Source: Limonium bicolor (lineage: Eukaryota > Streptophyta > Magnoliopsida > Caryophyllales > Plumbaginaceae). From it: a stretch of DNA of 64,000 nt. The notes below the pieces were generated by a model. It saw only the letters and a program-made list of their open reading frames with translations, searched no databases and had not been told where the DNA came from. Location of the stretch: contig CM041783.1 in the NCBI GenBank assembly GCA_023374045.1, positions 120,033,503 to 120,097,502 of the forward strand. The letters run 5' to 3'. Each line of letters begins with the position of its first letter. Within the stretch, counting starts at the first letter, position 1. Positions 26,169 through 47,112 of this stretch are shown here, piece by piece. Position numbers and translations under genes: made by a program.

Positions 26169-28196
26169 AAATGTACTAAGAACACATTTAAACTAGCCAA
26201 AACAAATTGCAGCATCAATGTGAACCCGGAAGCACATAAAATGTATTTTAAGGCATTTTTGGCCTTGTAACATACCTATAACATGGTATAAGTCATTAGG
26301 AACGAGTTCAATACATAAAATGTTAAATTAATACAAGGTAAAACAAAAAAAAATCAGATCAAAGGAGGGGAGGAGCTGCCGACATGAAGGAGTGACTCAC
26401 CAAGGCTATTTTGCTTTTAAAACTTACTATTTCAACAACTAAGACTTATTTGACGTGCCAAATCACCTTGTACCCTTAATGAATCATTAATAAGACTCTT
26501 ACCTGTCAAATTAGAGCTTCCAAGGTCGTAGCCAATCCTCCCTTTGAAGAAACAACACAAAACAAAGCCAAAGTTCTTAGTTTTGAACCTTAAAGAACAC
26601 CCTTCCTTGTAGGAATCATAACATTCTCGTCCTAGCTCCAAATCACAAGCTTGATAGCTCGTTGGAATCCTCTTTTCAAGAGCTTTGCAACCATAGCTCA
26701 TGATCCCCCAGATTCGCAGGAAAAAGCACTGAGAAGTGCCTTTGATTCTCGAGGTAAAACATTGTCTTCTTGAAAACTTCTTATTCTTTGGTTTTTGTTA
26801 CAGCCGATTGGCATAGGATACTAACCCATCTTATTCTTCATCTTATTGTATAATTTTGGGGACAATCACTTTAGCAAATTTCTGGTGAAATTTCTAAGGA
26901 ATTCAAGCTTAAATATTAAGCTAAAAGTTTAATATACAAGGTAAATCCTACAACTACCTATTTCTTGGTTCTAAATATTGATCTATATATGATCTAACAT
27001 ATTGTATACCTTGTTTGTTATTACCTAATTTAGTTGGTGTTAGATTTAATTTTTAGCACCAAAATGTTAATATTTTGTAATTATAAAATTAGATTTACAA
27101 CCCTTATGATATAAACTTTAATATAAGCTATCATAATATATAAGAAAAGTTCATATACTAGAATTTAGTGTGTGGCCGAAAATTAAGGGAACTTAGGTGA
27201 GATAGAAAAATTATATAACTAAGTTAAATTAAAGGAACTAGTATAATTAAGTGTAATATGTAAAATTTGTGAAGTTTTGGTCACATATTATAATTGTCAA
27301 AAATATATATGAATTATTATGAAATTTATGAAGTTTAGATGATGGGAAAATAATTGTAGAATTAAGGTTACAATTTATAAAGAGTTTATAAGTATTACTA
27401 GAATTTATAATGTTTTTGGTGTATTTAAAGCTAATAAAAGATAGTATATGTATACTACAACTTTAGGTAATTAAATCTGGTGATTTAGAGATGTTTAAAA
27501 TGAGTTTTGATGTTCAAATATCTTTAGGAAAATTAGTTACGAAATTAGAAAATAATTAGAGTTAATTTGGTTAATAAATGAGTTAGGATAAAAGAAAAGA
27601 CCACAAGGGTAAAATGGTAATTTCCCTGGTCAAACTTGGTCAATGGCAGTTTATAAAATGTTTAAGGAGTTAGAATAAAATTTGTAGCAAACGATTAGAT
27701 ATTAAAAGGATAAAGGAATAAAAAGTTAAGTTAAATTAACTTTAGGGGTAACATTGTAAATAATGGAAAGTTAGGGGGTTTGACCATAAAGGCTGGTCAA
27801 ACTTGGGTATATTTTGGTAATTGACCAAAGGTATAAAAGAAATTTATTAAGTAAGACTTTGGAAGGAATTAGAAATAAAAATAACAAGTTTAGAACTTAT
27901 TATGATTAAAATAGAGATTAAGAGAAAACTATGGGTAAGTAATGTAAATAACACATTTTATATGTGTTTAAAAGGTTAAGGAAATTAAATTAAGAATTTA
28001 GAAACAAGTTGTAAAAGAAACAGAGTTAAGACGGGGTTAAACGAGACCCGTATATAATTTAAGGTATACGAGGGGTATACCCGTAATTTAATAAGTACAG
28101 GAGAAATCATTACTTAAGGTATTTTTAATGAAAATACAAGTTATATTGGGAAAAGAAATAAATACGTATGATACGGACGTATACGAAAAATTTTAG

Positions 28197-28445
28197 TGTA
28201 CATGAATAGTACTCATATACGTGAATAGTATACGTATACATGAATAGTAAATACGTATACATGAATAATAAATACGTATAAATGAATAGTAAATACGTAT
28301 ACATGAATAGTAACTACGTATATAGGAATAGTCAAATACGAGATGTATACGTGAATAGTAAAATACGTATATGTGAATAGTAATATACGTATACGTGAAT
28401 AGTAGAATACGTATACGTGAATAGTAAATACGGTGAATAGTGAAA
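28197..28445 (+). repeat. 21-bp minisatellite in LTR A1
   Basis: Units of AATACGTATACATGAATAGT(A) repeat about twelve times with small changes. The core ACGTATACGT is itself palindromic. The field is present in all three family-A LTRs with different unit counts. Confidence 0.9.
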
Positions 28446-29656
28446 ATACGAAAATTAAGTTATTTAACCACGCTGTCCTAATGAACTATAGGAGCGGTGT
28501 AAGGGGACCAGAATAGTCGAGACGTCATCTGGGAGTGGACGAACGACGATAGGCTAAGGTATGGGATTCTTGTAGCTTGTTTGCTAACGAGGTCTACCTC
28601 GGTTTGGTGCTATGTGTTATTGTGATACGACCAAGCAAGATTAAACATGAAACCGATTTATTGTATTAGTATTGTGTGTCCATTGCACACTAACACGACT
28701 TGATGCAGAGCTAGTTCATTAACTATGTTTAGTAACAATTGTATAAGGTTATAAATACTCCCTGTTGTTAGTTGGTTAATACTAAGAGAGGTTTAACAAA
28801 TAAATTGTCAATGAGACTTCAGCTAACTGAAACTTGGGAGGAGAGGAATCCGGGACTGACTCCGGTCATGCATGTTCAGGTTAGGAGGTTGGCATCTGTA
28901 TCAGATCTGTCTTCCGCCTAGGGTCGACAAACTGACCTGACAATCTCGAGTGAACAGTTCGAGATGGGAGGAAAATTCAGGAGGCGCAGGAGGGTCAAGC
29001 CTACACCCCTCATCACTTAAGAATTAATGTTTATTGAACCAATGGAGCTAATAACTCATTGGCTAGGGTTACTTCGACCCAACAAAAATAAACATTTCAG
29101 TTAGAGAACAACTAGTTCTATTAGGAGGATGGTTGACACTTATAAGGTATGGTCAAACACGAGAATTAAACAATTCTCAGGCCTCAGGATTTAGGAATCT
29201 AACTTACTCATTAATGGGCGTCTATTACGACGTTTGATTTATTTGAGCTGTGAATGTTTCACATAAATGTGTTGTTGTTATTGTACTTCTTATTATTGTT
29301 GTATGAATAATCAACTTCATGTATACGACAAGTAGTCGTGTGTAGCCCTGGGTAGCTTGTGGGCTGCACGTTTTCTGTACCAGCCATGTGCTGAGCCCCT
29401 TGGGGCCTGTGATTTAAACTTTGCAGGTAGGTGCCAGACGAGGACCCAGCCTGAGAGTAGGAGTGGGTAGAGCATTAAGGGTTTTATTTGCATTACGAGT
29501 GTGCCTGTACACTCGCTTTATAAACTGTGGTAGTAAGTTGTAATAATAGGAGAGATACTTGAGATTTTGTATTGTATTTTGTTTTAAGACTTGTACGCAC
29601 TTATGTTCGGTACACTCGGGTCCGTCAGACCGTAGCTTGAGACTGGAATAAGCCTA

Positions 29657-29678
29657 GTTAGTCACGTGGGTGACTAAC
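29657..29678 (+). other. Conserved stem-loop with G-box near the LTR end (A1)
   Basis: GTTAGTCAC and GTGACTAAC form perfect 9-bp arms around GTGG. CACGTG overlaps the loop edge. The stem starts 120 bases before the LTR end and recurs at the same place in A2 (39999-40020), A3 (62677-62698) and the family-B LTRs. Confidence 0.7.
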
Positions 29679-29781
29679 GGCGGTAACACCAACTTTTAGT
29701 ATTTTCATCCGCTGTGTTGTAATATTTTTGCAGGTTTGTGGTGTGATGGTTCAGGTATAGCAGTTGGGGTGTTACAAAAAG

Positions 29782-29793
29782 TGGTATCATAGC
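29782..29793 (+). other. Primer-binding site (A, copy 1)
   Basis: TGGTATCATAGC, one mismatch to the tRNA-iMet complement; copy 2 at 40124 is perfect. Confidence 0.8.
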
Positions 29794-30644
29794 GTAGTTA
29801 CGCCCTGATGACTAGAGTAACCGAAGTAGAGTAGGTACCGAGTTAGAGTAATAGTCATGGGTTTGGGTGTGAGATAGTAGTGTGAGCTGAGTCAGATAAC
29901 CACTAATAAGAGTGGAATATCTTACTGTTTAGAAGATGTTATAAACGCTTAGACCAAAGCCTTTGTAATCACGAGCTTACTGTGTATTTATACTTATTTA
30001 GATGTCAGGAAGAAGAGGACGAGGCCGAGGCCGTGGCAAAGAAGGAGATCAGGCTGCTGAGATTCCGGGTGGGCAGACGATAGCTGAGATCGTTGCTGCC
30101 GCCCTGGGGCACATGGGCTATCAGCCCGGTGCGGGACCGCCTGCTCCACCACCACAGCCCCGGGAGCCAAACTGGGTGAAGAGTCTCGCTGACCTTCGAC
30201 CCCCACCGTTTAGAGGGGAGACAGACCCCACCAAACTTGAGGTGTACATCTCAGATCTGGAGACCGCCTTCGAGACTCTAGATATACCTGCAGGAGCCAA
30301 GGTAAGACTTGTTGTGTTCTACCTGAAGGATGCGGCGGGCGATTAGTGGCAGCTAGTTAGGGCCATACATGTGGCCAACCCCAACTCGGCTGGGAGCAGT
30401 ACGCGGCCTTGCTGAGAGCCAAGTACTACCCCACCCATGTCCAGACTAAGAAGCATTTAGTGTTGGACACGCTGAAGCAGACTGACAAGATGACGGTGGA
30501 CGACTACTACTCTCAGTTCACCGCTCTTATTCGTCTTCTACCAGGATTAGGATATTCAGACCAGATTCTGGTCGACCGCTTCTATGGCGGGCTGAGTCAC
30601 TGCCTACGCTATGGCATGGGCCGACAAGCTACACTACCTTGCAG

Positions 30645-30721
30645 GTAAAGAAAGTTGAGATTAGTTGAAATGAATGAACGTTATATGAGAATGAATGTGA
30701 GACTAATATTTTTAAGAGCAG
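30645..30721 (+). other. Candidate intron 1 in gag, copy 1 (77 nt)
   Basis: Donor CAG|GTAAAG, acceptor AGAGCAG|GA. Stops lie within. Removal joins the YGMG...LQ segment to ECYHATAKVE. Copy 2 has the same 77-nt segment at 40989-41065. Confidence 0.65.
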
Positions 30722-30845
30722 GAGTGTTATCATGCCACTGCTAAAGTTGAATTCACCGTCCATTTGAGGGACCAAGATCAGGCGCTGAAGAGAAAAGTTG
30801 CTGGAAATAGTTCTGACAATCAGGGGCAGGGAGGACAGAAGAAAG

Positions 30846-31044
30846 GTAAGTACCAGCCCCCACCCCAGAAAGGCTCAAAGGGTAACCAACCTAAGGCTAC
30901 TGAAGAGCCACTAAAGCTAACCTACGGCGTAGCAGCGAAGCCTCTGCGCTCGCCTGCACCAAAGGGAAACAAGTAACTCTTTAAATTAAGTTAACAGATA
31001 GATATCAACCTTGAAGTTCAATTACTAATGTTGTAAGCAAACAG
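30846..31044 (+). other. Candidate intron 2 in gag, copy 1 (199 nt)
   Basis: Perfect donor AAAG|GTAAGT, branch-like ATTACTAATG at 31021, acceptor AAACAG|GT. Phase-1 splicing gives an open frame straight into the zinc knuckles. Its first 126 nt are also open, so retention would give a Gag ending at TAA 30973. Copy 2 carries a TAG in this part, which fits intron rather than exon. Confidence 0.7.
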
Positions 31045-31395
31045 GTACTGAGACCGGCAAGGGGACCGACGGGGGATATAAGCGCCGCTACAACTGTCAC
31101 AGGTGCAACCAAGACCACCCTAGAGTTTATTGTGAAGGCAATAAGGTGGAGTGTAATTTCTGTGGTGTGTTCGGACACCGAGCTTTCGAATGTTTCAGAA
31201 ACCCAGAGAGTAAAGCCTATAGGCCTGGGTGGAAGGCCAAGGGCAAGGGCGTGGCCACTCCGAATCCTGGAACCGACGGTCCTAAGGCGACACAGCCAGC
31301 TGCTAACAGGGGACCCCGGGTTGTCCAACGATCAGGGCCGCCTGCACTACACATGGTGGACCGGGAAGACGAGGCTGAACCCTCATCGATACCAG

Positions 31396-31528
31396 GTACC
31401 ACTACAACCTATTAGGGAGAAAACTGTATGCTTCTCGCATTTCATGCATGAATCAGTGACTATATGTTTTGAGTGAGTTTCTAGTTAGTTAAGTAGAACT
31501 CATGTAAGATAAATTATTACCACCTTAG
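31396..31528 (+). other. Candidate intron 3 between Gag and AlkB, copy 1 (133 nt)
   Basis: Donor ACCAG|GTACCA, acceptor ACCTTAG|GA. Phase-1 removal joins the knuckle exon to the AlkB exon in frame. The unspliced frame stops at 31413. Copy 2 has the same length at 49524-49656. Confidence 0.65.
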
Positions 31529-32267
31529 GAAACGTCAATATATGTTATCCAATACCTTCATCACCTAGCCTAGAAGAGACCGACCAAAAGATTCACGAAT
31601 TTCCAAGGGAGCAGTGTCAGGTCATCCGGCCAGGTATGATCTTATTAAAGGGATACCTGTCACCAAAGGCACAAATCGCCATCATCAGGAGATGTATCCA
31701 GCAAGGAGTGGGACCGGGAGGTTTCTATACACCGGAATACCCTGGAGGATCGAGAATGAAGCTAAGAATGATGTGCTTGGGTAAAAACTGGAACCCTTAC
31801 ACAACACTTACCAAAAGACGAGAGAATTGGATGGAACAACACCACCAGAGATACCTGAGGAGTATCATACGGTTAATACACAAGCCGTAGAGATTGCTCA
31901 ACAACTTGAGGCGGATCCAATCCCAAACCTTGAAGCAGACCTCTACATTATTAACTTCTACGAAAAGGAGGGACGACTTGGACTACACCAAGATAAGGAC
32001 GAGACAGTGGAGTCTCTTAACCGAGGGATACCCGTAGTGTCTTGGTCCATTGGAGACGACGCCGAATTCCTATATGGCGAGCAGAAGCGTGTGGACCTTG
32101 CCCAGAAAGTGGTACTTAAGTCAGGAGATATTCTAATCATGGGTGGAAAATCGAGAATGCTGTATCGCGGTATCAAGAAGATTAAGTTGAATACGGCACC
32201 ATCAACAGTAATCAATGCCACACACATGAGACCAGGACGCTTGAACCTAACCTTTAGGAAGTACTAG
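31529..32267 (+). pseudogene. AlkB-type 2OG/Fe(II) dioxygenase domain captured in a gypsy element, copy 1 (broken)
   Basis: AlkB proteins oxidatively remove methyl groups from nucleic-acid bases using Fe(II) and 2-oxoglutarate. After a linker (31529-31635) the domain spans 31636-32267. Recognisable blocks in order: GPGGFYTPEY, LRMMCLGKNW, YIINFYEKEGRLGLHQDKDE, PVVSWSIGDDAEFLYG, SGDILIMGGKSRMLY and RPGRLNLTFR. The proximal iron ligands (HxD) are intact at 31986-31994. The distal histidine is arginine (CGC 32166-32168), which should abolish iron binding. A one-base deletion near 31800 splits the frame. The RxNxTxR 2-oxoglutarate site is intact. The blocks are closest, by eye, to plant ALKBH1-type proteins. 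It lies between the Gag knuckles and the protease, on the same strand, with a stop (TAG 32265) 112 nt before the pol ATG. Confidence 0.9.
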
Positions 32268-32378
32268 CCATGTAATACACTGAAGTGTTGTAATAGAAAA
32301 CTCATAATGTAAAAGGATGGTTTAAATAATATCAGTGCTGATTACTCGTTTTCGACTCGTATTATACCATCAGTACTT

Positions 32379-32867
32379 ATGATCCTTAAGAAATACATAG
32401 GTTGTGGATTCGGTTCGGAAGGTGCGTTGAGCTTACTCACTGAGGCATAGGCCGAAGAGAGCGGCACTATCCTCACGGGTACCTTTCCGATCAATGGCGT
32501 TGATGCATCAGTACTCTTCAACTCAGGGGCCTCGCATACCTTCGTCTCATCATCATTTGCAAGGAGGTTAGGGCTAGACGCTGACGAGCTGCCAGACTTC
32601 ACGGTTACGCTCTCGTCTTAGGAGAAGGTTCGATGCACTCGCTATTACCGAGCAGCCACTATCCGAATTAGAGGAGAAGACTTTCCTATCACCTTGATTG
32701 AGTTCAGAGATTTAGGGTTTGATGTTATATTCGGGATGAACTGGTTGGAGCGGCACAAGGGTCGTATCCTCTGCGCCGAGCACCGACTGCTACTCAGGAG
32801 TCCGTTTGGGGTTACTATATCATACCGCTAGAGACCTAGAGAGCCTTCAACCAAGATCATCACCGCT
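32379..32867 (+). pseudogene. pol: Family-A aspartic protease, copy 1
   Basis: ATG 32379 opens the pol frame, which meets TAG at 32448 (present in both copies) just before AEESGTILTGTFPING. The catalytic motif reads LFNSGASHTFV: the aspartate is asparagine (32520-32522), so this copy is inactive. A second stop lies at 32619, where copy 2 has lysine. The end of the domain reads DVIFGMNWLERHKG, the usual Tekay/Del-type protease tail. Confidence 0.85.
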
Positions 32868-33960
32868 ATGGCCATGTATCGAGAGCTAAGAAAGAAGAAA
32901 GAAGTGTACCTCTGCTATGTTCAGGACATCGAGAGAGATTCAGAGTTCGACCCCAAAGTACTAGTGGTGTCGGAGTTTCCCGACCTCTTTCCAAGGGAAC
33001 TACCCGGCATGCCACCACCATGGGAGGTAGAGTTCACCATCGAGCTGCTACCAGGAATCGGACCGATAGCCAAGGCGCCTTACCGCATGGCTCCAGCTGA
33101 GATGAATGAATTGAAAGAACAGTTGAGAGACCTGCTCGACAAAGGGTTTGTGCGGCCTAGTGTATCACTATGGGGAGCGCCAGTACTCTTCGTGAAGAAG
33201 AAGGATGGCAGTCTCCGCCTCTGCATCGACTACAGGGAGTTGAATACTGTTACAATAAAGACCAAGTATCCACTACCACGCATAGATGATTTATTTGATC
33301 AATTGAAAGGGGCATCTGTGTTCTCCAAGATTGATCTCAGATCAGGGTATCATCAGATTCCACTTAGAGAGAAGGATATTGTGAAAACGGCATTCCGGAC
33401 GAGATATGGCCACTACGAGTTTACAGTGATGCCGTTTGGTTTGTCGAACGCACCGGCGATATTTATGGATTTGATGAACCGTTTGTTCAGGGAACAGTTG
33501 GACAAGTCAGTTGTGGTCTTTATGATGATATACTCATATATTCAGGGTCGAGAGGTGAACATGAAAGTCACTTGAGACAAGTTTTAGAGATACTAAGGGA
33601 GAACCTGCTTTATGCTAAGTTCTCCAAGTGTGAGTTTTGGCTTGACCAGGTCTCTTTCCTTGGTCATGTCATCTCAGATGCTGGGATCTCAGTGGATCCA
33701 GCAAAGATTGACGCCGTGCGCACCTGGCCAAGGCCGAAGTCAGTTACCGACATCAGGAGTTTCCTCGGCTTGGCAGGTTATTACAGGAGATTTGTTAAGG
33801 ACTTTTCTAAGGTCAGCAAGCCAATGACCAGTTTGATGAAGAAGGATGCACCGTTTGCATGGACATATGACTGTGAGAGTTCATTTCAGAGCTTGAAGGA
33901 CTCATTGACTTCTGCACCTGTTCTGACTATCCCAGACGGTACAGAGGGATTTGAGGTATA
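32868..33960 (+). pseudogene. pol: Family-A reverse transcriptase, copy 1
   Basis: Blocks: [45 protein letters not shown] and [13 protein letters not shown] one-base deletion at about 33522 destroys the FIDDIL catalytic block that copy 2 retains. The thumb region continues in another frame (33572-33961) with [14 protein letters not shown] and [16 protein letters not shown]. The polymerase is dead in this copy. Confidence 0.9.
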
Positions 33961-34316
33961 GTTGTGAAGCATCAGGTAGAGGATTGGGTTGTGTACTCAT
34001 ACAGCATGGCAAGGTAGTTGCTTATGCCTCTCGCCAGCTGAAGAAACATGAGGAAAACTACCCCACGCATGATCTTGAGTTGAGAGCTATAGTCTTCGCC
34101 TTGAAGATATGGCGCCATTACTTATACAGAGTTAGTTTAATAGTCTACACCGACCATAAAAGCTTGAAGTACATATTCACTCAGAAGGAGTTGAATATGA
34201 GACAGAGAAGATGGTTAGAGTTCTTGAAGGACTATGACATTGACCTCTAGTACAAAGAAGGGAAGGCCAATGTTGTAGCTGATGCTCTGAGTCGTCGAGC
34301 ACACTCGCTTCATGCC
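33951..34316 (+). pseudogene. pol: Family-A RNase H, copy 1
   Basis: The first catalytic block reads CEASGRGLG rather than CDASG, next to a frameshift at about 33960. [30 protein letters not shown] and ADALSRRA are readable. A TAG stands at 34248, where copy 2 has glutamine. Confidence 0.9.
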
Positions 34317-35615
34317 ATGGTTGCTAGTTCCAGCTTGATTGACGAGGTGGGAGAGGCTCAGCAGAGCGATCCTTATATGATGGAGATCAAGAAGAAGCTG
34401 ATAGAGGGTACATTCGAGAGCCAAAAATATGACTTCGAATTACATGATGACGATCTGATCAGATTGAGGGGCCGATTATGCATTCCTCGCAGCAGCACTG
34501 AGCTGAAGGAGCACATTCTACGAGAGTCACACTGTTCTTCTGTTTCTATCCATCCGGGAGCTTCGAAAATGTATAAAGACATGAAGCGTTACTTCTGGTG
34601 GACTGGGATGAAGAGTGACGTTACTGAGTTTGTAGTGAGGTGCCTAACTTGCCAGAAGGTAAAGTTCGAGCACAGGCGACCTGGAGGCATGGTTCAATCG
34701 ATGCCAGTTCCAGAGTGGAAGTTTCATGATATCTCCATGGATTTCGTGGTTGGACTCCCACCTACCAGGGGAGGTCTGAACATGATATGGGTTGTGTTGA
34801 TCCTGACCAAGGTAGCCTGATTCATACCGATGAAGGACACTTGGAAGGTAACGAAGCTTGCTGAACTGTTCGATAAGGAGATCATGAGACACCATGGAGT
34901 ACCTAAGACCATAGTATCTGACAGAGACACCAGATTCCTTTCAAGATATTGGAAAACTACACGGGAAGCATTGGGTACAGAATTGAAGCTAAGTACCGCG
35001 TTCCACCCTCAGACAGATGGTCAGACTGAGCGTACGATTCAGACACTTGACGACATGTTACGAGCATGTGCCTTGGACTTCTAGAGAAGTTGGATCGATA
35101 AGTTGCATTTGATCGAGTTCTCAAACAACAATAGCTATCATGCTACGATCAAGATGGCACCTTTCCAAGCATTGTACGGCAGACCATGTCGCACACCACT
35201 CTGTTGGGATGAGTCAAGTGAAGCGGTTATCATAGGACCGGAGTATTTAGAGCAAGTTCAGGCTGAGGTTCAGCAGATTCAGGAGAATATAAAGGCAGCG
35301 CAGGATAGACAGAAGTCGTATGCTAATGTGCGACGACGAGACTTAGAGTTCTCTGTGAATGACCAGGTATTTCTGTGGGTTTCGCCGATGAAAGGAATAT
35401 TCAGATTTGGACAAAAGGGCAAGCTGAGCCCAAAGTTTGTAGGTCGTTATACCATTACAGAGCGGGTGGGCCCAGTTGCTTACAGGTTAAACCTAACCGG
35501 TGAGCTGGGTAAAGTGCATGATGTTTTCCACGTCTCACAGCTTAAGAAGTACATGCACCATCCCTCCCATGTTTTGCAGGCCGAACGGCTAACCATAGAG
35601 CCAACCATGAGATAA
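34317..35615 (+). pseudogene. pol: Family-A integrase, copy 1
   Basis: The HHCC zinc finger (ESHCSSVSIHPG...CLTCQKVK), the core aspartates (ISMDFVVGLP; IVSDRDTRFL) and glutamate (DGQTERTIQTL) are all visible. TGA at 34818 and TAG at 35082 interrupt it, and three bases of the VVDRLTKVAR block are missing. The C-terminal GPY-like stretch (GPVAYRLNLTGELGKVHDVF) is present. Confidence 0.9.
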
Positions 35616-35777
35616 GTAGAGACCCCTCAGAGGATTCTGGATACGAAGACTAGGGACACTCGCCACAAGTCAATGAGACTGGCTAAACTTCTCTGGTACA
35701 ACCTGGACGTCGAGGAGGCTACTTGGGAATTAGAGGATAAGATGCGGGCGAAGTACCCTTCGCTCTTTTCAGACTAG
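35616..35777 (+). pseudogene. pol: Chromodomain-like C-terminus of family-A Pol, copy 1
   Basis: After a stop at 35616 the frame reads ETPQRILDTKTRD, KLLWYNLDVEEATWELED and KYPSLFSD before TAG 35775. The WExxEEATWE-type block is the truncated chromodomain typical of Tekay/Del chromoviruses and may guide integration into particular chromatin. This assigns family A to the chromovirus branch. Confidence 0.75.
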
Positions 35778-36079: not shown

Positions 36080-39000
36080 TGACATACCCCAAACCTTAGT
36101 ATATTGATGAACTATCTAATTATAATATATTAAGGATATAATATGCCATATAAACATTATAAAAGTGTTAAACAACAATGTACACAAAAAAACATACCTT
36201 AAGCGTTTAAACCGAAAACGCACCTTAGAGCACGAAAATGTGCTTTAAGGGAAAATGTGCCTTAAGCATTTATACATGGAACTAAAGGCTAATGAGCCCA
36301 AATACCAATAAAATTAAGGGAACAACAATAAAATGGTCATAGGAACCATTACGTGTACACACAGATTAAGTATACAAGTCCACACAAAAACCGGTACTAA
36401 ACTAACGAAAGTCAAGGAGAAACCACTAAACGGCTTGGTTTAAATTGGAATGAGCAACATGCTACTTCACGAACAAAGTTTCTAAAGGTTTTAAATGTAC
36501 TAAGAACACATTTAAACTAGCCCAAACAAATTGCAACATCAATGTGAACCCGGAAGCACAAAAAATGTGTTTTAAGGCATTTTTGGCCTTGTAACATACC
36601 TATAACATGGTATAAGTCATTAGGAACGAGTTTAATACATAAAATGTTACATTAATACAAGGTAAAACAAAAAAAATCATATCAAAGGAGGGGAGGAGCT
36701 GCCGACATGAAGGAGTGACTCACCAAGTCTATTTTGCTTTTAAAACTTACTATTTCAACAACTAAGACTTATTTGACTTGCAAAATCACCTTGTCCCCTT
36801 AATGAATCATTAATCAGACTCTTATCTGTCAAATGAGAGCTTCCAAGGTCGTAGCCAATCCTCTCTTTGAAGATACAACACAAAACAAAGCCAAAGTTCT
36901 TAGTTTTGAACCTTAAAGAACACCCTTCCTTGTAGGAATCATAACTTTCTCGTCCTAGCTCTAAATCTCAAGCTTGATAGCTCGTTGGAATCCTCTTTTC
37001 AAGAGATTTGCAACCATAGCTCATGAGCCCCCAGATTCTCAGGAAACACCACTGAGAAGTGCCTTTGATTCTCAAGGTAAAACATTGCCTTCTTGAAAAC
37101 TTCTTATTCTTGGTTTTTGTTACAGCCGATTGGCATGGGATTCTAACCCATCTTATTCTTCATCTTATTGTATAATTTTGGGGACAATCCTTTTAGCAAA
37201 TTGCTGGTGAAATTTCTAAGGAATTCAAGCTTAAATATTAAGCTAAAAGTTTAATATACAACGTAAATCCTACAACTACCTATTTCTTGGTTCTAAATAT
37301 TGATCTATATATGATCTAACATATTGTATACCTTGTTTATTATTACCGAATTTAGTAGGTGTTAGATTTAATTTTTAGCACCTAAAATGTTAATATGTTG
37401 TAAATCTAAAATTAGATTTACAACCCTTATGATATAAACTTTAATATAAGCTATCATAATATATAAGAATAGTTCATATACTAGAATTTAGTGTGTGGCT
37501 GAAAATTAAGGGAACCTAGGTGAGATAGAAAAATTATATAACTAAGTTAAATTAAAGGAACTAGTAATTAAGTAATATGTAAAATTTGTGAAGTTTTGGT
37601 CACATATTATAATTGCCGAAAATATATATGAATTATTATGAAATTTATGAAGGTTAGATGATGGGAAAATAATTGTAGAATTAAGTTTACATTTTATAAA
37701 GAGTTTATAAGTATTACTAGAATTTATAAGGTTTTTGGTGTATTTAAAGCTAATAATAGATAGTATATGTATACTACAACTTTAAGTAATTAAATCTGGT
37801 GATTTAGAGATGTTTAAAATGATTTTTGATGTTCAAAAATCTGTAGGAAAATTAGTTACGAAAATTAGAAATTAATTAGAGTTAATTTGGATAAATGAGT
37901 TAGGATAAAAGAAAAGACACAAGGGTAAAATGGTAATTTCCCTGGTCAAACTTGGTCAATGGCATTTTAAAATGTTTAAGGAGTTAGAATAAAATTTGTT
38001 GCAAAAGATTAGATATTAAAAGGATAAAGGAATAAAAAGTTAAGTTAAATTAACTTTAGGGGTAACATTGTAAATAATGTAAAGTTAGGGGGTTTGACCA
38101 TAAAGGCTGGTCAAACTTGGGTATATTTTGGTAATTGACCAAAGTATAAAAGAAATTATTAAGTAAGACTTTGGAAGGAATTAGAAATAAAAATAACAAG
38201 TTTAGAACTTATTATGATAAAATAGAGATTAAGAGAAACTATGGGTAAGTAATGTAAATAACACATTTTTATGTGTTTAAAAGGTTAAGGAAATTAAATA
38301 AGAATTTAGAAACAAGTTGTAAAAGAAAAGAGTTAAGACGGGGTTAAACGAGACCCGTATATAATTTAAGGTATACGAGGGGTATACCCGTAATTTAATA
38401 AGTACAGGAGAAATCATTACTTAAGGTATTTTTAATGAAAATACAAGTTATATTGGGAAAAGAAATAAATACGTATGATACAGAGTATCATACGGACGTA
38501 TACGAAAAATTTTAGTGTACATGAATAGTACTCATATACGTGAATAGTACATGTATACATGAATAGTAAATACGTATACATGAATTGTAAATATGTATAA
38601 ATGAATAGTAAATACGTATAAATGAATAGTAAATACGTATACACGAATAGTAACTACATATATAGGAATAGTCAAATACGAGATGTATACATGAATAGTA
38701 AAATACGTATACGTGAATAGTAAAATACGTATACGTGAATAGTATAATACGTATACATGAATAGTAAAATATGATGAATAGTGAAAATAAGAAAATTAAG
38801 TTATTTAACCACGCCGTCCTAATGAACTATAGGAGCGGAGTAAGGGGACCAGAATAGTCGAGATGTCATCTGGGAGTGGACGAACGACGATAGGCTAAGG
38901 TATGGGATTCTTGTAGCTTGTTTGCTAACGAGGTCTACCTCGTTTTGTGTGCTATGTGTTATTGTGATACGACCAAGCTAGATTAAACACGAAACCGATT

Positions 39001-40118
39001 TATTGTATTGTTATTGTGTGTCCATTGCACACTAACACAACTTGATTCAGAGCTTGTTCATTAACTATGTTTAGTAACAATTGTATGAGGTTATAAATAC
39101 TCCCTGTTGTTAGTTGGTTAATACCAAGAGAGGTTTAACTAATAAATTGTCAATGAGACTTCATCTAACTGGAACTTGGGAGGAGAGGAATCCGGGACTG
39201 ACTTCAGTCATGCATGTTCAGGTTAGGAGGTCGGCATCTGTATCCGATCTGTCTTCCGCCTAGGGTCGACAAACTGACCCGACCATCTCGAGTGAACAGT
39301 TTGAGATGGGAGGCAAATTCAGGAGGCGTAGGAGGGTCAAGCCTACACCCCTCATAACTTAAGAGTTAATGTTTATTAAACCAATGGAGCTAATAACTCA
39401 TTGGCTAGTGTTACTTCCACCCGACAAAAATAAACATTTCAGTTAGAGAACAACCAGTTCTATTAGGAGGATGGTTGACACTTATAAGGTATGGTCAAAC
39501 ACGAGAACTAAACAATTCTCATGCCTCAGGATTTAGGAATCTAACTTACTCATTAATGGTCATCCATTACGACGTTTGATTTATTTGAGCTGTGAATGTT
39601 TCACATAAATGTGTTGTTGTTATTGTACTTCTTATTATTGTTGTATGAATAATCAACTGCATGTATACGACAAGTAGTCGTGTGTAGCCCTGGGTAGCTT
39701 GTGGGCTGCACGTTTTCTATACCAGCCATGTGCTGAGCCCCTTGGGGCCTGTGATTTAAACTTTGCAGGTAGGTGCCAGACGAGGACCCAGCCTGAGAGT
39801 AGGAGTGGGTAGAGCATTAAGGGTTTTATTTGCATTACGAGTGTGCCTGTACACTCGTTTTATAAACTGTGGTAGTAAGTTGTAATAATAGGAGCGATAC
39901 TTGAGATTCAGTATTGTATTTTGTTTTAAGACTTGTACGCACTTATGTTCGGTACACTCGGGTTCGTCAGACCGTAGCTTGAGACTGGAATAAGCCTAGT
40001 TAGTCACGTGGGTGACTAACGGCGGTAACACCAACTTTTAGTATTTTCTTCCGCTGTGTTGGAATATTTTGGCAGGTTTGTGGTGTGATGGTTCAGGTTT
40101 AGAAGTTGGGGTGTTACA
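36080..40118 (+). mobile_element. Family-A LTR A2, shared by both internal regions
   Basis: TGACATACCCCAAACC...TTGGGGTGTTACA, 4039 bases. It follows a polypurine tract and precedes a primer-binding site, so it serves as 3' LTR of copy 1 and 5' LTR of copy 2. It contains the minisatellite (38517-38785) and stem-loop (39999-40020). No gene is supportable inside; small frames in the minisatellite are repeats only. Confidence 0.92.
38517..38785 (+). repeat. 21-bp minisatellite in LTR A2
   Basis: AATACGTATACATGAATAGT-type units, about twelve copies, with a unit order slightly different from A1. Confidence 0.9.
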
Positions 40119-40343: not shown

Positions 40344-41116
40344 ATGTCAGGAAGAAGAGGACAAGGCCGAGGCCGTGGCGAAGAAGGAGATCAGGCTGCT
40401 GAGATTCCGGGTGGGCAGACGATTGCTGAGATTGTTGCTACAGCCCTGGGGCACATAGGCTGTCAGCCCGGTACGGGACCGCCTGCTCCACCACCACAGC
40501 CCCAGGAGCCAAACTGGGTGAAGAGTCTCGCTGACCTTCGACCCCCACCGTTTAGAGGGGAGACAGACCCCACCAAACTTGAGGCGTACATCTCAGAGCT
40601 GGAGACCGCCATCGAGAATCTTGATATACCTACGGGAGCCAAGGTAAGACTTGCTGCGTTCTACCTGAAGGATGCGGCGGGCGATTGGTGGAAGCTAGTT
40701 AGGGCCGAACATGTGGCCAACCCCAACTTCGGCTGGGAGCAGTACGCGGCCTTGCTGAGAGCCAAGTACTACCGTACCCATCTCCAGACTAAGAAGCTTT
40801 TAGAGTTGGACGCGCTGAAGCAGACTGACAAGATGACGGTGGACGACTACTACTCTCAGTTCACCGCTCGTATCCGTCTTCTACCAGGATTGGGATATTC
40901 AGACCAGATTCTGGTCGACCGCTTCTATGGCGGGCTGAGTCACCGACTACGCTATGGCATGGGCCCGACAAGCTACACTACCTTGCAGGTAAAGAAAGTT
41001 GAGATTAGTTGAAATGAATGAACGTTATATGAGAATGAATGTGAGACTGATATTTTTAAGAGCAGGAGTGTTATCATGCCACTGCTAAAGTTGAAATCAC
41101 CGTCCAGTTGAGGGAC
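40344..41116 (+). pseudogene. gag: Family-A Gag, copy 2, 5' part (interrupted by T3)
   Basis: A 215-codon exon is open from ATG 40344 to the candidate donor at 40988. It has the Arg/Gly-rich start, LADLRPPPFRGETDPTKLEA, AGDWWKLVRAEHVANPNF and GLGYSDQILVDRFYGGL. Unlike copy 1 it lacks stops, so the Gag core is intact. Candidate intron 1 is 40989-41065. The next exon is cut after GGGAC (41112-41116) by the family-T element and resumes at 48902. Confidence 0.9.
40989..41065 (+). other. Candidate intron 1 in gag, copy 2 (77 nt)
   Basis: Donor CAG|GTAAAG, acceptor AGCAG|GA, same length as in copy 1. Confidence 0.65.
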
Positions 41117-42871
41117 TGTTATACCCAAAATTTCAACCCCCCCGGAAGAGATTCTCTACTAATATGCTAATAGCGAGGGCTCCCAGTTCTATCGGCACAT
41201 TTCAGTGTACTAGGGACAGCTTAGTCATCTCCAGGGGCATTTTCGTAATTTTTCAAGGCTCTTAAGCCCCTTATAGGCTTTCTCTCTCCTCCAAATAAGG
41301 GCCAAATCAATTCAAAATGCTTTGAAATTTTAACCCACGATAGAGGATGACCTCTGAAGCATAATGGCGTTGGAATTTTGATATTTCGAATTTCCAATAA
41401 TTTTCTAGCAATTTCTGATTGAATCTGACGAGAAATTGAATTTAAAAATATTCCAATGTCCAAAAAATTCGATTCCACTTTAGAAAATTCGGAAATATCA
41501 TCCTTTACCCATGTGTAAAATTTCATAATCAAATTCCTTTTGGAAGCCCTTAAGCTAAAACGTCGGTAAATCTCGGTTTTTACCGGATTTTTCTATCTTT
41601 ATGGAAGCCTATATAAGAAACCTTATCCCATGATCAAAGAAGAACCTCAAGAACCCTAGACCCTCAAAGAAGGCAGCCGTCTCATTCTCTTCACGTTTTT
41701 GCACATCCAAGCACCAAAATCACATCAAAAATCCCCCAAAATCACCATCTAAACACATTTTCAACTCCCAACACATCAACAATCATCAAACATCAACCAA
41801 ACCACCTCCAAAACGTGAAGAACACCTTCAACAATCAACAACCAGAAGCTCGGGTCGAACTCAATCTGGAACCGGCACCACTGGAGCCTCCGAAGAATCC
41901 CGACGTGAAGAATCCTCCTGAATTCGAAGGTAAAACAGGTTGCAATTCTACTTTTCTAACTCTCCACGACCCTATTAACTCTCTGTCAAATTTTGGGTTG
42001 AAACTAACCTTTTTACGCTTCTGTATTGCTAATTACTTTTGTTTCTGCCTTGTTACTTGTTCGTCAAGTTTCGTACATAATTCGACTTCAAACTGCAATC
42101 TTTCAATTACTAACGAATTTTATACCTTTCAGGCTACACGTGCATAAATTTGAGCCGAAAACACCTTCGGGAACCACCATAAAACCCCTGTCCGTGGGTG
42201 GTCCGGGATCTCGGACCTATAGTCCGGGACCACGGACGGGTTGTCCGTGGCCACGGACACCCACGGACGGTGGCGGGATTTGAAAATTTTAAAAATTTAG
42301 GTTTTACTAAAGTATGTCCGGGCCTACGGACGTCCTGTCCGTGGCCCCGGACTTTTCAAATTTTTGTTTTCTGTTTAATTCGACTTTTATTTTCACATAG
42401 ATTCACTAGGGTCAGTGGTTACGGACATTAGGTCCGTGGCTACGGACGGAAACAAAATTTGACCAAATTCTGCCTCTGAAACCCTAGTTTAGGTAATTTC
42501 AACTTTCACTTTTATTTTCAATCAAAAAATGCTAAAAAAAAAAAAAGAAGCTCGCGCACTTAGGTTAAAACGACTCGTAATAAGCCGTAATTAAACTAAG
42601 TAGAGGAAAAACGACATCTAGTGGTAATGAAAGTAATTGAACCCTAATTAAGTCGAATATCAAGCCCCCGAACCCGAACTCTACCTTTCCTAATTTACTC
42701 TAGGTAAAAATTAGGTGGTGACTCACAATAGGTTCAGTGAGCAAGCATAGGTTTTAACAATTATTGTTATATGACATAGTTATTAACCTTAGGTTATAAG
42801 TGGACCTAAAACCCGACTAGATCCCAATCAACTTAATCAACATAGGATAGGGTTTAAAATCGAGGCTCACA
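41117..42871 (+). mobile_element. 5' LTR of T3
   Basis: TGTTATACCC...GGCTCACA, 1755 bases. TATA box CTATATAAG at 41610-41618. Palindromic GTCCGTGG/CCACGGAC and GTCCGGG motifs at 42190-42450. It lacks a roughly 21-bp repeat unit that the 3' LTR has. Confidence 0.92.
41930..42132 (+). other. Intron-like 203-nt segment in LTR leader (T3, 5' LTR)
   Basis: Donor GAAG|GTAAAA, branch-like ATTACTAACG at about 42107, acceptor CTTTCAG|GC. It lies about 310 bases after the TATA box, in the presumed transcribed leader. Confidence 0.55.
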
Positions 42872-42874
42872 GAC

Positions 42875-42892
42875 TGGCGACTCTGCTGGGGA
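42875..42892 (+). other. Primer-binding site, Arg-tRNA-like (T3)
   Basis: TGGCGACTCTGCTGGGGA starts three bases after the LTR end. It fits the complement of a plant arginine tRNA 3' end, as used by Ogre/TAT elements; the tRNA assignment is from memory of the family. Confidence 0.7.
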
Positions 42893-43309
42893 CAACTTCT
42901 TAATTTTAACTTGTTTAATTCTAAGAAAGAGGGCTTAACTCGAAATTGTTTATTTATGGCTTTATTACATTGTTTGTTTACTTTTGTGCACAATTTAACT
43001 TTACGCACCTTTGCATCATATGAGAGCGAGGGTCCACTTAAACCGATTTCACCCCGGGACCCGTTTGAGGGTCCCCTGTCAGGAACTCACACCTTTTAGG
43101 TGATGTGAATAAGCGGGGGAAAAGAGGAGGATGTCGTCTAACCACATCCCCTTAATACCTGGGCTTTAGCCCCAAGCGTTTTCCTGGCAGTGTCCTTACC
43201 TAGCCCAATGTTTGGTCAGTCAAAGACCGACCGTAGACGCACACCTTCAGGTGATGTGAAAAAAGTGGGGAAGCCCAAAGAGAATAGCGTGCAAGCCCTA
43301 TTCCTTTGT

Positions 43310-44130
43310 GGTGACCTGGGCCCGCACCCCTAGCACCTCTCCGGATCGATCCATACCCGGTTCTATCTAAACGTCTAGTGAGGACATGTTGAATTTGTGT
43401 GGGCCTTGTTTGCTTGTATGATCGGCCCACTACCCAGCCTAGAGATTGATAGGAACTTCTCCTACATCAACCTAGCCCAAAACGAATTCGCAGCTCTATT
43501 TGCCTGCGGCCTAGAGGCCCTGTTTGGTTTAACATGTGAGTCGTTCGGGCCTCGGCCCAAAAGCATAGACTTAGGTGATTTCTCTTCTGGCCCAATTTGA
43601 ATTATCCAATAATTAGTTCTAGGCCCATAAAAAAGAAATCCACCTGAACTTGAAATAAAATCCTTTTCGGCTTAGCAACCATCTTCTCTGGCCCGAAGAA
43701 AGTTAGGCCCATTTGTGTTTAGGGACCATTCCAGCTCATGTGCTTTACTTCAGGCCCAAACACATTCCGGCCCAAGGGCACATTCTAGTCTAGGTAGACT
43801 TCTTATCATGACCCTAACCCAAAACCCTAGATCTAGGTGTCATCTGTTAAAGCCAACCAAAATCACTCGGCCCAAATTCCAGTTCACATATAGAGCAATC
43901 ATTCTGGCCCAAGTACCACACTCATAACTCATTCCATTTGAGCCCATAAACCAATTCATAGTTTTGGCCCAGGATCTTCGCTCTCAATCTAGAATTTCGG
44001 CCCATAAAACATTTGAATCCAAGATAGTTTGCATAATTCGTTCATTCCAGTTTTCGGCTTCAAGGCCCAACAAGAGCATCAAACGAATCTCGACTTCAAG
44101 GCTATCCTCGGCCGAGTGGCCCATTCAGGT
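43310..44130 (+). promoter_or_regulatory. GGCCCA-rich stretch in T3 internal region
   Basis: About fifteen copies of GGCCCA or its complement occur in 800 bases, many as CGGCCCAAA or AGGCCCATA. GGCCCA is the core of plant site-II/TCP-binding elements. Whether these act as enhancer sites or are just repeat debris cannot be told from sequence. Confidence 0.45.
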
Positions 44131-45852
44131 CATGTGATTTTTTCAGCTTGTTTGCTCATTCTGGATTCAGGCCTACATGTACGTTCTAGCTAGGAATCAC
44201 TCTAATATATGCACTTCACTCTCAGTTTGGCGAAAACTCAGGCCAGTTACTTCCTACAAACTATCGGCATTCCTAGTTCAGACATTTTACAGGGCCTACC
44301 GAAGTTGGAAGGAGACAATCAGGTCAATGGCGCCCCGACGGTCAACAGCTCCAGTTTAACACGTTGGCACATACTGTTCAATCCCTATTTCAGAAGATTT
44401 CTCGATTTAGTAGTTTTCTTTTCAAAATCATTCTTCTAACTTTTATGGTAGTTAGCTTCCTTTATCATTTTAGATTACAACTTTTGATGTTATCTTTCCA
44501 TTCGTGAATTAGAGCATAGTTCTATTTTCGTAATTTTTTGTGTGCATTCATTCAACAAAACAAAAACACAAAAATTTGTTTTTAAGGGATCACAGAGTAA
44601 TCATTTCCCAACTATGGAACAGAATGACTTGTCTTTTGTTTCTAAAAGGGTGAACATGTCCGTCCTCACACCATAGACTATCCCATAATATCCACGAAGC
44701 ATTCCAAAATCCGCACCTGTTTAAGTGTTGTCATAAACCCCAGGTCAATACTGGGGGGAATCTGAGTTCAGGATCATCATCTTTAATCTTTCGTTTAAGC
44801 GTGTGAACTAGTCTCTAAGTGAAATTCACGAGAGTGTCTTGAACGGAAAAACCATGAGTGAACGAGTGTGTCATTTTTACACGACTCTGGTGAGACCACA
44901 TTCAAAGGTGAGGTAAACGGCATAACTCTGACCGAAGGAGATAATTTGTAAATTTACTCTTAGACCTGCGAAAAGTAACAAAGAACGGATACACAACTAT
45001 CAGGAATGACGAAGCACCTAGGTACAGCACCACATAGCCAAAAGCTTGTAAACCCTGTCATTAAACCCTAGGCACCCCCGCTGAGCCTTTCATATATCCC
45101 TTTTCGATATTATGAACTCCACAGAATCACCCAGCCAATGATGAATTACCGACCCGGTGACCAAAGGAAGCGAGGAGCCCGACTCTCAGATAACAATCTA
45201 ATCAGTCCAAAGAAGCGATGCCGCTATCAGCATGACGAAGTGATCCTTAAATGGTCCCAAAGTGGCATAGGATCCAGAGAGCTCACATCAAACCAACTCT
45301 CATAACTCAAACCCGGGAAACACAAGAACCCCGAAGGCAAAGTCAAGGAAGGATAAAACAAAAAGGCAAACCCGAAGTGCCTCTAAGAAGTCCAAAGGAC
45401 AAAAAAGAGAAATGGTGTAAAGGACAACTTCAAAAGTCCAGGTCCAGAAGCTCGAAAACAACGTCAACATGAAGCAGCCAGATGACTTCAAGACGAGGAA
45501 GATGAATCTGAGAGAAGACGCAAGTTGCAGCTTTGGTCACCCATTTAAGCTCCACATACCTCAAATATCCCTCCATGATCCCGTCGTCTTTCATCACATC
45601 CTATGGCCACGTTATAAGCTCTAAAGACTTCTGACTTGATAGTTGTGTGTCCAATCACGTGAAAGTAACAGATCAAATGCGTAAATCCATCAAATATCGA
45701 ATTCAATGGTCTAGAAGTTGTGACTGTAGGTGAGGAACGAGTGCAAGCACCAAACACGCCGAGTGTAGGTTAGGAAGCACCACATAAAAACATAAGCCCT
45801 GACCCTGTGAGGACGAGACTCGTTCGCACGTTTAATAAAAGAAAATACTGGG

Positions 45853-45945
45853 GGCAATCGATCGGAACGATCGATTGCCACGAACTCTAGCTCAGATTGT
45901 CTTAAGGGAAAAATACTGGGGGCAATTGTTGGTTCCAACAATTGC
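45853..45945. repeat. Two consecutive perfect inverted repeats after PPT-like G runs (T3)
   Basis: 45853-45864 pairs with 45868-45879 (12 bp, loop GAA). 45922-45932 pairs with 45935-45945 (11 bp, loop TT). Both follow AATACTGGGGGCAAT-type runs. T1 has the same pair at 1231-1324 with the first loop changed to TCA while the stem is unchanged. Confidence 0.75.
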
Positions 45946-46361
45946 TATGACAACACCAATTGGAACCCAGAGCTTAAACATCACCACCACCATCACACAC
46001 CACCGGCCCGCATAAGCCCTTACCTCCACACCAAACACCACAGGCCCACATAAGCCCTTACCTTTACATCATACACCATACCCCACCGATGGCATGTTCA
46101 TCTTCTAGGAGATAAATTACAAGTTCGAAGTCTATGGTTAGGAAATGATAATTTCGCTTTCCTTTTCATTAAACAGATTATTCTTCAAACACTACCACGT
46201 TTGGCACCTCTTTCAGCAATTTCTTGTTTTGGACAAATTTCCTACATACACTTTGATCGTATTTTGACATGCACATCCTCATTGCCACGTTTGGCACTTT
46301 CAAAATTAACTTTCATCATGACCATTGCATCTATTCGTATGAGACTCCTCGTCATAATTCA

Positions 46362-46650: not shown

Positions 46651-46737
46651 TTCACCAGAGCAGCAGAACTCACTAGAGCAGAAGAACTCACCCGAATAGA
46701 AGAACTCGACCCAACACCAATTTTCAATCACTGATAT

Positions 46738-47010: not shown

Positions 47011-47095
47011 ATTGCACGTGTGGTCTTTTAAGATCCAAAATTTTGGGGTATCACTCAAGCATCAACTAGCCTTTTCATTTCCATTACAAAGTCTA

Positions 47096-47112
47096 GTTGA
47101 CGGGGGGCAATC
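47096..47112 (+). other. Polypurine tract of T3
   Basis: GTTGACGGGGGGCAATC directly precedes the 3' LTR. Confidence 0.8.

What the first reader, a model, noticed from the sequence alone, without database searches (positions are those of the whole stretch)
31529..32267. An LTR retrotransposon carrying an AlkB nucleic-acid demethylase domain between Gag and protease
Both internal copies of this Tekay-like gypsy element hold a complete AlkB domain (31636-32267 and 49764-50396) on the sense strand, after the Gag zinc knuckles and before the protease. Visible: the HxD block, the distal histidine block, and the RxNxTxR 2-oxoglutarate motif, in the right order and spacing. Presence at the same place in two copies means it was there before they diverged, so it is not a chance insertion in one copy. 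Known: AlkB enzymes remove methyl groups from RNA or DNA bases, and AlkB domains occur in some plant RNA viruses. Inference: the element captured a host ALKBH1-type gene and may use it to erase methyl marks on its own RNA or DNA, or to repair alkylated RNA. I do not know of a described element of this kind but could not search.
Basis: partly seen in the sequence, partly recalled or inferred. Interest (0 to 1): 0.95.

Follow-up and report, generated by a model that had tools for sequence, protein, structure and literature searches.

The report
Plant jumping gene carrying a demethylase
A family of plant jumping genes, with well over a hundred copies in one genome, carries inside its coat-protein gene a captured plant enzyme of the kind that strips methyl groups from DNA or RNA, and selection appears to have kept that enzyme's sequence across the family.

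Summary
The AlkB domain is real (Pfam E=1.3e-38) and sits between Gag zinc knuckle and protease in both tandem copies of a Ty3/gypsy element. Neither window copy is intact: copy 1 has a frameshift and lacks the distal iron-binding His, copy 2 lacks the HxD Asp. They look like a tandem duplication of one insertion, so alone they prove little. The host genome does: 48 of 48 AlkB-selected loci hold AlkB before protease/RT, and 20 of 20 loci selected by protease-RT hold it. AlkB omega is 0.11-0.14 in two subfamilies, near RT. Element AlkBs form one clade beside plant ALKBH1. Gag has three predicted introns conserved across subfamilies; AlkB is an exon in phase with the zinc-knuckle exon, and a second acceptor before protease has the same phase, so alternative splicing should give Gag-AlkB or Gag-Pro-Pol. 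Precedent: an orchid Ogre/Tat element with an ALKBH5-like ORF (PMC9289625); this differs in lineage, enzyme class, position and likely expression. New variant of a known kind. Splicing, packaging and substrate are untested.

The parts
26172..29776 (+). LTR 1 (TG...CA), 5' end of the tandem array
   Evidence: self-BLAST and end sequences; 96.7% to LTR2, 93.5% to LTR3
29782..29793 (+). primer binding site, TGGTATCAGAGC type (initiator tRNA-Met, motif recalled), one mismatch here
   Evidence: exact in 34 and with one mismatch in 3 of 40 AlkB-selected loci reaching that far
30002..30644 (+). unit 1 gag exon 1 (capsid), frameshifted
   Evidence: unit 2 equivalent 40344-40988 lies in an ORF that hits PF03732 E=2e-13
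30645..30721 (+). unit 1 predicted intron 1 (GT...AG, phase 0)
30722..30965 (+). unit 1 gag exon 2
30966..31044 (+). unit 1 predicted intron 2 (donor GT absent here, present in unit 2 at 49095)
31045..31395 (+). unit 1 gag exon 3 with CCHC zinc knuckle
   Evidence: zf-CCHC E=0.0002 (21.7 bits, cut-off 20.8) in the unit 2 equivalent; E=0.0057, under cut-off, in unit 1
31396..31528 (+). unit 1 predicted intron 3 (GT...AG, phase 1) between zinc-knuckle exon and AlkB exon
31529..32267 (+). unit 1 exon 4, AlkB (ALKBH1-type); 1-nt deletion, H178R
   Evidence: PF13532 in both halves, the first half under cut-off
32268..32400 (+). non-coding spacer ending in a conserved AG (predicted acceptor of exon 5)
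32401..35774 (+). unit 1 exon 5: protease, RT, RNase H, integrase, chromodomain-like end; broken by frameshifts and stops
36496..40118 (+). LTR 2, shared by the two units
40344..40988 (+). unit 2 gag exon 1 (PF03732)
41117..48896 (+). later nested LTR element that splits unit 2 gag exon 2; not part of the AlkB element
   Evidence: GGGAC on both sides; its LTR pair 96.3%
49174..49523 (+). unit 2 gag exon 3 with zinc knuckle
49524..49656 (+). unit 2 predicted intron 3
49657..50396 (+). unit 2 exon 4, AlkB, open frame 49764-50396, D120H
   Evidence: PF13532 E=1.3e-38
50530..51678 (+). unit 2 exon 5, first part (protease PF08284, RT)
51679..56265 (+). second later insertion (TG...CA, AGGGT on both sides); not part of the AlkB element
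   Evidence: end sequences; no terminal repeats over 150 nt in its self-BLAST
56271..58500 (+). unit 2 exon 5, second part (RT end, RNase H, integrase, chromodomain-like end)
59228..62796 (+). LTR 3, 3' end of the array; outer flanks GGAAA / GAATG do not match as a target duplication

Best explanation
A Ty3/gypsy family of a plant, probably a chromovirus, captured an ALKBH1-type 2-oxoglutarate/Fe(II) dioxygenase once, long ago, and has kept it under purifying selection while splitting into at least four subfamilies. AlkB is the fourth exon of a gag gene with three introns. Splicing the zinc-knuckle exon to the AlkB acceptor gives a Gag-nucleocapsid-AlkB fusion ending at the AlkB stop; splicing the same donor to a second acceptor of the same phase in front of protease gives Gag-Pro-Pol. 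The unspliced RNA, which keeps the introns, is the genome. Shown: position, one clade, selection on AlkB, conserved splice letters and phases. Inferred: that this splicing occurs; that Gag carries the enzyme into the particle; that it acts there on unpaired element RNA or first-strand cDNA (methyl-adenine or methyl-cytosine that would stall reverse transcription or mark the RNA for sequestration).
For: Position: AlkB before PR and RT in 48 of 48 AlkB-selected loci (upstream, gag not detected in 3 and zinc knuckle in 1); AlkB present in 20 of 20 PR-RT-selected loci; also in both loci read of a fourth subfamily. One clade: support 100/99 with 19 rows, 99/99 with 14 rows. Selection: AlkB median omega 0.140 (859 of 861 pairs) and 0.111 (15 of 15), RT 0.101 (860 of 861) and 0.165 (15 of 15) (pair tallies). 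Residues N107, Y109, H118, D120, H178, R202, R208 kept in all 47 open frames of 48 loci. Splicing: donor 1 GT 46/48, acceptor 1 AG 45/48, donor 3 GT 47/48, AlkB acceptor AG 46/48, PR acceptor AG 48/48; in window, L103 and L083 compared, 10 of 10 of these splice letters are identical where intron interiors and spacer are 16-25% identical and exons 32-71%; intron GC 0.27-0.34, exon GC 0.46-0.57; from the PR acceptor to PR, phase 1 and open in 34 of 48 and 18 of 20; AlkB-to-PR frame offset spread 14/21/13 over the three classes in 48, which speaks against read-through. Fold: AlphaFold model of P0001, pLDDT 95.5; best PDB match OsALKBH1, TM 0.93.
Against: No transcript, protein or enzyme data. The 48 loci came from the 150 best-scoring AlkB matches, which favours intact copies. 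In the PR-RT sample (20 best-ranked of the 38 outside the window) only 4 of 20 AlkB frames are uninterrupted and omega is 0.39 for AlkB (120 of 210 pairs) and 0.25 for PR (198 of 210). PR omega is 0.487 in group 1 (15 pairs). Between-subfamily dS is 1.1-2.4, near saturation; 32 AlkB pairs were dropped for it. In 14 of 48 loci the PR acceptor is out of phase or followed by a stop. Both window copies have lost an iron ligand. No gag-AlkB fusion was seen among the 120 listed of 342 proteins of about 430-1370 aa. Whether AlkB-free sister families exist was not tested.
Confidence: 0.72

Rival explanations
1. Hitch-hiking gene fragment: AlkB was inserted by chance into one element and merely copied with it.
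For: Both window copies are broken and probably derive from one insertion.
Against: AlkB in 48 of 48 and 20 of 20 loci, four subfamilies, omega 0.11-0.14, cofactor residues kept in 47 of 47 open frames.
Confidence: 0.03
2. AlkB is kept for a non-enzymatic role, as a folded tail of Gag or an RNA-binding module.
For: It is predicted to be fused to the nucleocapsid part of Gag; rice ALKBH1 impairs PRC2 binding, an effect that may not need demethylation (PMC10469495, passages).
Against: Iron and 2OG ligands are kept in 47 of 47 open genomic frames, and D120 and H178 in 6 of 6 external relatives (read in the sequences).
Confidence: 0.1
3. The enzyme acts away from the particle, on host chromatin, tRNA or defence transcripts, to weaken silencing of the element.
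For: Rice ALKBH1 is nuclear, acts on 6mA in single-stranded DNA and R-loops and antagonises PRC2 (PMC10469495, passages); host ALKBH9B frees ONSEN RNA from stress granules (PMC12786077, passages).
Against: The predicted fusion to Gag would place it in the particle; no targeting signal was looked for.
Confidence: 0.25
4. AlkB is a separate small ORF translated on its own from its ATG, and the intron-like gaps are decay.
For: An ATG opens the conserved domain in the window; the orchid enzyme is a separate ORF (PMC9289625).
Against: The frame is open back to a conserved AG acceptor and includes the ALKBH1-like NIC/FDIC motif in most of the loci printed (stops or a shift in L105, L109 and L117); three group 1 loci looked at have Leu in place of that Met (L081, L103, L105); gaps sit at the same places with the same phases in three subfamilies.
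Confidence: 0.12

Closest known systems
Gypsy_Pa_2799 family of Phalaenopsis orchids (Ogre/Tat) with paALKBH5-like ORF2 (PMC9289625)
   Same: Plant Ty3/gypsy element that carries a captured AlkB-family 2OG dioxygenase with all cofactor residues; the orchid enzyme removes m6A from ssRNA in vitro.
   Different: Orchid: Ogre/Tat, 25.5 kb, 6.4 kb LTRs, tRNA-Arg PBS, ALKBH5 class, separate ORF2. Here: probable chromovirus, 3.6 kb LTRs, PBS of initiator-Met type, ALKBH1 class, exon between zinc knuckle and protease. Their screen of 121 angiosperm genomes found the domain only in two Phalaenopsis species.
Plant ALKBH1 (OsALKBH1, PDB 5xeg/5xoi; ALKBH1C/D)
   Same: Same fold and motifs; 52% identity in the structural alignment of P0001.
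   Different: Host genes are separate genes; element AlkBs form their own clade and lack about 10 residues that many host rows have in the middle of the domain.
Ogre, EVADE and BARE1 splicing
   Same: Plant LTR elements whose transcripts are spliced (PMC12786077, PMC3735527, passages).
   Different: None of the passages seen describes three gag introns or a captured enzyme exon that alternates with protease-polymerase.
AlkB domains of plant RNA viruses (Alpha-/Betaflexiviridae, Closteroviridae)
   Same: Parasitic element with its own AlkB (PMC9289625 discussion).
   Different: RNA viruses, AlkB in the replicase (recalled); not compared here by sequence.

Membership tests
AlkB-like 2OG-Fe(II) dioxygenase | Profile match over curated cut-off | tested here: met
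   PF13532 133.7 bits vs 31.2 in copy 2; all 150 scored genome matches over cut-off
AlkB-like 2OG-Fe(II) dioxygenase | HxD...H and RxNxTxR ligands | tested here: met
   Met in the 47 open frames of 48 loci for the seven ligands listed; position 204 is N in 42 and S in 5 of them. Not met in either window copy
AlkB-like 2OG-Fe(II) dioxygenase | Double-stranded beta-helix fold | tested here: met
   Model of P0001, a relative, not of the window copy: pLDDT 95.5, best match 5xeg TM 0.93
Plant ALKBH1 subfamily | Groups with plant ALKBH1 rather than other ALKBH classes | tested here: met
   Best PDB sequence hit OsALKBH1, no ALKBH5 among the 22 hits at E<=1; structure ranks 1-2 OsALKBH1, ALKBH5 from rank 41. 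The trees held plant ALKBH1 and bacterial rows only, no ALKBH5/9/10
Plant ALKBH1 subfamily | Demethylase activity | not testable with these tools
   needs protein
Ty3/gypsy LTR retrotransposon | LTRs, PBS and order Gag-PR-RT-RH-IN | tested here: met
Chromovirus | Chromodomain after integrase | tested here: inconclusive
   PF00385 E=3.7e-4, 20.8 bits, under the cut-off of 25.1, at the expected place
Tekay clade | RT/RH/IN phylogeny with Tekay references | not tested
Orchid ALKBH5-like Ogre/Tat family | ALKBH5-class enzyme in a separate ORF2, tRNA-Arg PBS, 6.4 kb LTRs | tested here: not met
   ALKBH1 class, initiator-Met-type PBS, 3.6 kb LTRs, exon between zinc knuckle and PR
Orchid ALKBH5-like Ogre/Tat family | Second RNase H domain | not tested
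   not searched for

The most novel reading that the evidence does not exclude
An LTR retrotransposon that alternates by splicing between Gag-demethylase and Gag-Pro-Pol, so that Gag carries a nucleic-acid demethylase into the particle, where it protects or edits the element's own RNA or cDNA; captured once, before or near the radiation of the sampled angiosperm ALKBH1 genes, and now present in well over a hundred copies in one 2.9-Gb plant genome.
Probability: 0.45. Interest if true: 0.92.

Novelty: new variant of a known kind. Interest (0 to 1): 0.8.

Why it matters
It would be a second capture of an AlkB enzyme by plant LTR retrotransposons, in a different element lineage and from a different AlkB class than the orchid case. 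Convergence suggests that base methylation of retrotransposon RNA or cDNA is a real pressure in plants. The predicted Gag fusion points to the particle as the place of action, and the two acceptors give a concrete, testable switch between Gag-AlkB and Gag-Pro-Pol. Because many copies in a living genome keep an open AlkB frame, substrate and splicing are directly testable.

Tried and rejected
Viral contigs: two scans (P0001 and alignment A2) gave no relative. Bacterial/archaeal genome contigs: 80 loci kept, the best 47% identical, from bacterial records; two were used as outgroup. A search for longer proteins (about 430-1370 aa) gave 342 hits; the 120 listed are 55% or less identical to P0001, so no element-type gag-AlkB fusion was seen there. 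A search for the host's own ALKBH1 gene with coconut P0012 returned 139 scored matches, 51-58% identical; two were read and both are elements; the host gene was not recognised. Read-through from AlkB into protease was considered and rejected because the frame offset is spread over all three classes. The intron 2 acceptor was misaligned in group 2; I looked at it by eye in L083 and L103 only and quote no count for it; its index was off by one and is not used. One search failed by a wrong option and was redone; the 'saturated' column printed is wrong (those pairs had been dropped before), so the tallies are used.

Full report
What is in the window. Three LTRs of about 3.6 kb (26172-29776, 36496-40118, 59228-62796) enclose two internal regions, an LTR-internal-LTR-internal-LTR array. 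Unit 2 is interrupted by two later insertions, one an LTR element with GGGAC on both sides, the other of unknown type with AGGGT on both sides. The PBS has the TGGTATCAGAGC form (initiator tRNA-Met type, recalled). Pfam finds Gag, zinc knuckle, AlkB, aspartic protease, RT, RNase H and integrase parts; the chromodomain hit is under its cut-off (20.8 against 25.1 bits) but at the expected place. The Tekay label was not tested.

The AlkB domain. Copy 2 matches PF13532 over its whole length, E=1.3e-38. The best solved relative is rice OsALKBH1, E=3.2e-63; E. coli AlkB follows at about 1e-16 and ALKBH1 of other organisms at about 1e-9. Copy 1 has a 1-nt deletion and Arg at 178 for His; copy 2 has His at 120 for Asp. 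Each copy has thus lost one iron ligand that the other copy keeps. omega between the two copies is 0.45 (10 synonymous, 16 non-synonymous changes over 204 codons).

Two copies, probably one insertion. The internals are 95.6-97.7% identical in each of seven regions compared, AlkB included; LTR1-LTR2 differ by 3.3%, LTR1-LTR3 by 6.5%, LTR2-LTR3 by 6.2%. The outer flanks show no matching target duplication. A stop just before protease is shared by both units and absent at that place in 20 of 20 other copies of the subfamily. I read this as one insertion, later duplicated by unequal recombination.

The host genome. The window lies in a 2.92-Gb assembly. A search for PF13532 scored 150 of 38,325 loose candidates; the 150 listed match over the cut-off and over the whole profile, one with a stop inside. 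Forty-eight loci were read (8 with the search, 40 by request), chosen from those 150, so biased to intact copies. In 48 of 48 AlkB lies before PR and RT; upstream, gag was not detected in 3 and the zinc knuckle in 1. In 47 of 48 the AlkB frame is open (208-216 aa; 43 of them exactly 210), and N107, Y109, H118, D120, H178, R202 and R208 are kept in all 47. By AlkB they fall into group 1 (6 loci) and group 2 (42 loci), besides the window type. AlkB is present in 20 of 20, clearly partial in 3; the frame is uninterrupted in 4 and all seven residues are found in 10. A third search, with a coconut ALKBH1, scored 139 of 46,892 candidates; two were read (L149, L150) and show a fourth subfamily with zinc knuckle, open 210-aa AlkB, PR and RT. 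The matches share no place on contigs C5, C7 and C8, which I compared by eye; other contigs were not compared. True copy number was not measured.

Selection. Median omega (Nei-Gojobori) of AlkB is 0.140 in group 2 (859 of 861 pairs; two with dS 0) and 0.111 in group 1 (15 of 15); protease 0.121 (856 of 861) and 0.487 (15 of 15); RT 0.101 (860 of 861) and 0.165 (15 of 15). Between groups omega is 0.08-0.13 but dS is 1.1-2.4 and many pairs are saturated and dropped (AlkB 6 of 6 window-group 1 and 26 of 252 group 1-2; RT 6 of 6, 38 of 42 window-group 2 and 244 of 252; protease 52 of 252 group 1-2). In the PR-RT-selected sample with the window copy omega is 0.39 for AlkB (120 of 210 pairs long enough) and 0.25 for PR (198 of 210), as expected of older, partly neutral copies. 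Among the 40 loci L089-L128 the closest copies on different contigs are 98.1% identical over 4.8 kb (L117-L124), so spread has been fairly recent.

Origin. Six database proteins from unnamed sources join the element clade (P0001, P0002, P0003, P0022, P0064, P0231); their genomic context could not be read. Named plant ALKBH1 proteins in the lists are 57% or less identical to P0001 (capped lists). Trees put all element AlkBs in one clade: 97/99 with 8 rows, 100/99 with 19, 99/99 with 14. The clade lies beside the sampled angiosperm ALKBH1 genes, with Cryptomeria outside both (93/81, 97/80 and 90/81). This suggests one old capture; the element branch is long (about 0.6), so the depth is uncertain, and the host's own gene was not found. 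The AlphaFold model of P0001 has pLDDT 95.5; the best PDB match is OsALKBH1 (TM 0.93, 52% identity), E. coli AlkB next, ALKBH5 from rank 41.

Gene structure. In the window, gag and AlkB occupy three frames separated by gaps of 77-133 bases with GT-AG ends (the donor of the second is lost in unit 1, present in unit 2) and low GC (0.27-0.34 against 0.46-0.57 in exons). The same gaps, with other sequences, occur at the same places in L083 and L103, one locus of each other group, and AlkB and protease acceptors in phase 1 are seen again in the fourth subfamily. Counts over 48 loci: donor 1 GT 46, acceptor 1 AG 45, donor 3 GT 47, AlkB acceptor AG 46, protease acceptor AG 48. In the PR-RT sample, of those aligned: donor 1 15 of 15, acceptor 1 15 of 15, donor 2 14 of 16, donor 3 16 of 16, AlkB acceptor 16 of 17, protease acceptor 20 of 20. 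In a three-row comparison (window, L103, L083) intron interiors are identical in 16-24% of columns, the spacer after AlkB in 25%, exons in 32-71%, and the 10 splice letters examined in 10 of 10. Donor 3, the AlkB acceptor and the protease acceptor are all phase 1. The stretch from the protease acceptor to protease is in phase and open in 34 of 48 and 18 of 20. The offset between AlkB and protease frames is spread (14, 21, 13 of 48), so the stop after AlkB is unlikely to be read through. The simplest model is alternative use of two acceptors from one donor.

How it may work. Shown: position, one clade, selection, conserved signals. Inferred from sequence: Gag-AlkB and Gag-Pro-Pol by splicing, with the unspliced RNA as genome, since the intron ends persist in the loci aligned. 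Inferred from knowledge: Gag assembles the particle, so a Gag-AlkB fusion would be packaged. ALKBH1 of rice acts on 6mA in single-stranded DNA and R-loops (PMC10469495, passages), and an Arabidopsis element is freed from stress granules by host ALKBH9B (PMC12786077, passages). In a particle the unpaired element RNA and first-strand cDNA are natural substrates. Which base is acted on is unknown.

What is known. PMC9289625 (parts 1-4 of 7 of the text and the discussion read) reports a 25.5-kb Ogre/Tat element of Phalaenopsis with a separate ALKBH5-like ORF, active on m6A in vitro, and found no such domain in the other genomes of its 121. Searches for AlkB or dioxygenase with retrotransposon, LTR, gag, gypsy, Tekay, chromovirus or ALKBH1 (20 of 28, 20 of 292, 1 of 1, 20 of 37, 1 of 1 and 10 of 50 papers listed) showed no other report of an AlkB-bearing retrotransposon in the titles and abstract openings listed; only open-licence PMC papers were searched. 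Splicing of plant LTR element RNA is known for Ogre, EVADE, BARE1, Bagy2 and CRR (PMC12786077 and PMC3735527, passages). A review of additional ORFs in plant LTR elements does not mention AlkB or oxygenase (PMC7264820, term search of the text). I therefore call this a new variant of a known kind: apparently an independent capture, of another enzyme class, in another element lineage, Gag-linked and apparently splice-switched.

Noticed in passing
G000:C1:497439466-497470353: Four AlkB matches in a row at about 10.1-kb spacing, 99.9% identical in the two that were read (L112, L113): probably another tandem array of the element, like the window's.
   Followed up: partly
28199-28432, 38518-38768, 61219-61452: A 21-bp tandem repeat (about 8-12 units) inside each LTR, varying in number between the three LTRs.
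   Followed up: no
41117-48896: Nested LTR element with GGGAC on both sides; its LTRs are related to stretches at 2474-4340 and 9185-10946, and a 37-bp minisatellite lies at 46358-46653 inside an ORF.
   Followed up: no
51679-56265: Second insertion in unit 2 RT, TG...CA with AGGGT on both sides, of unknown type; no long terminal repeats found by self-BLAST.
   Followed up: partly
database proteins P0018, P0041, P0051, P0296: A tight grass-like ALKBH1 clade (100/99) from contigs without a named record; could be a second element-borne or a paralogous lineage.
   Followed up: no
intron 3, e.g. 31396-31528: The stretch GCATTTCATGCATG is shared between the window and L083 introns although most of the intron has diverged; possible splicing or packaging signal.
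   Followed up: no
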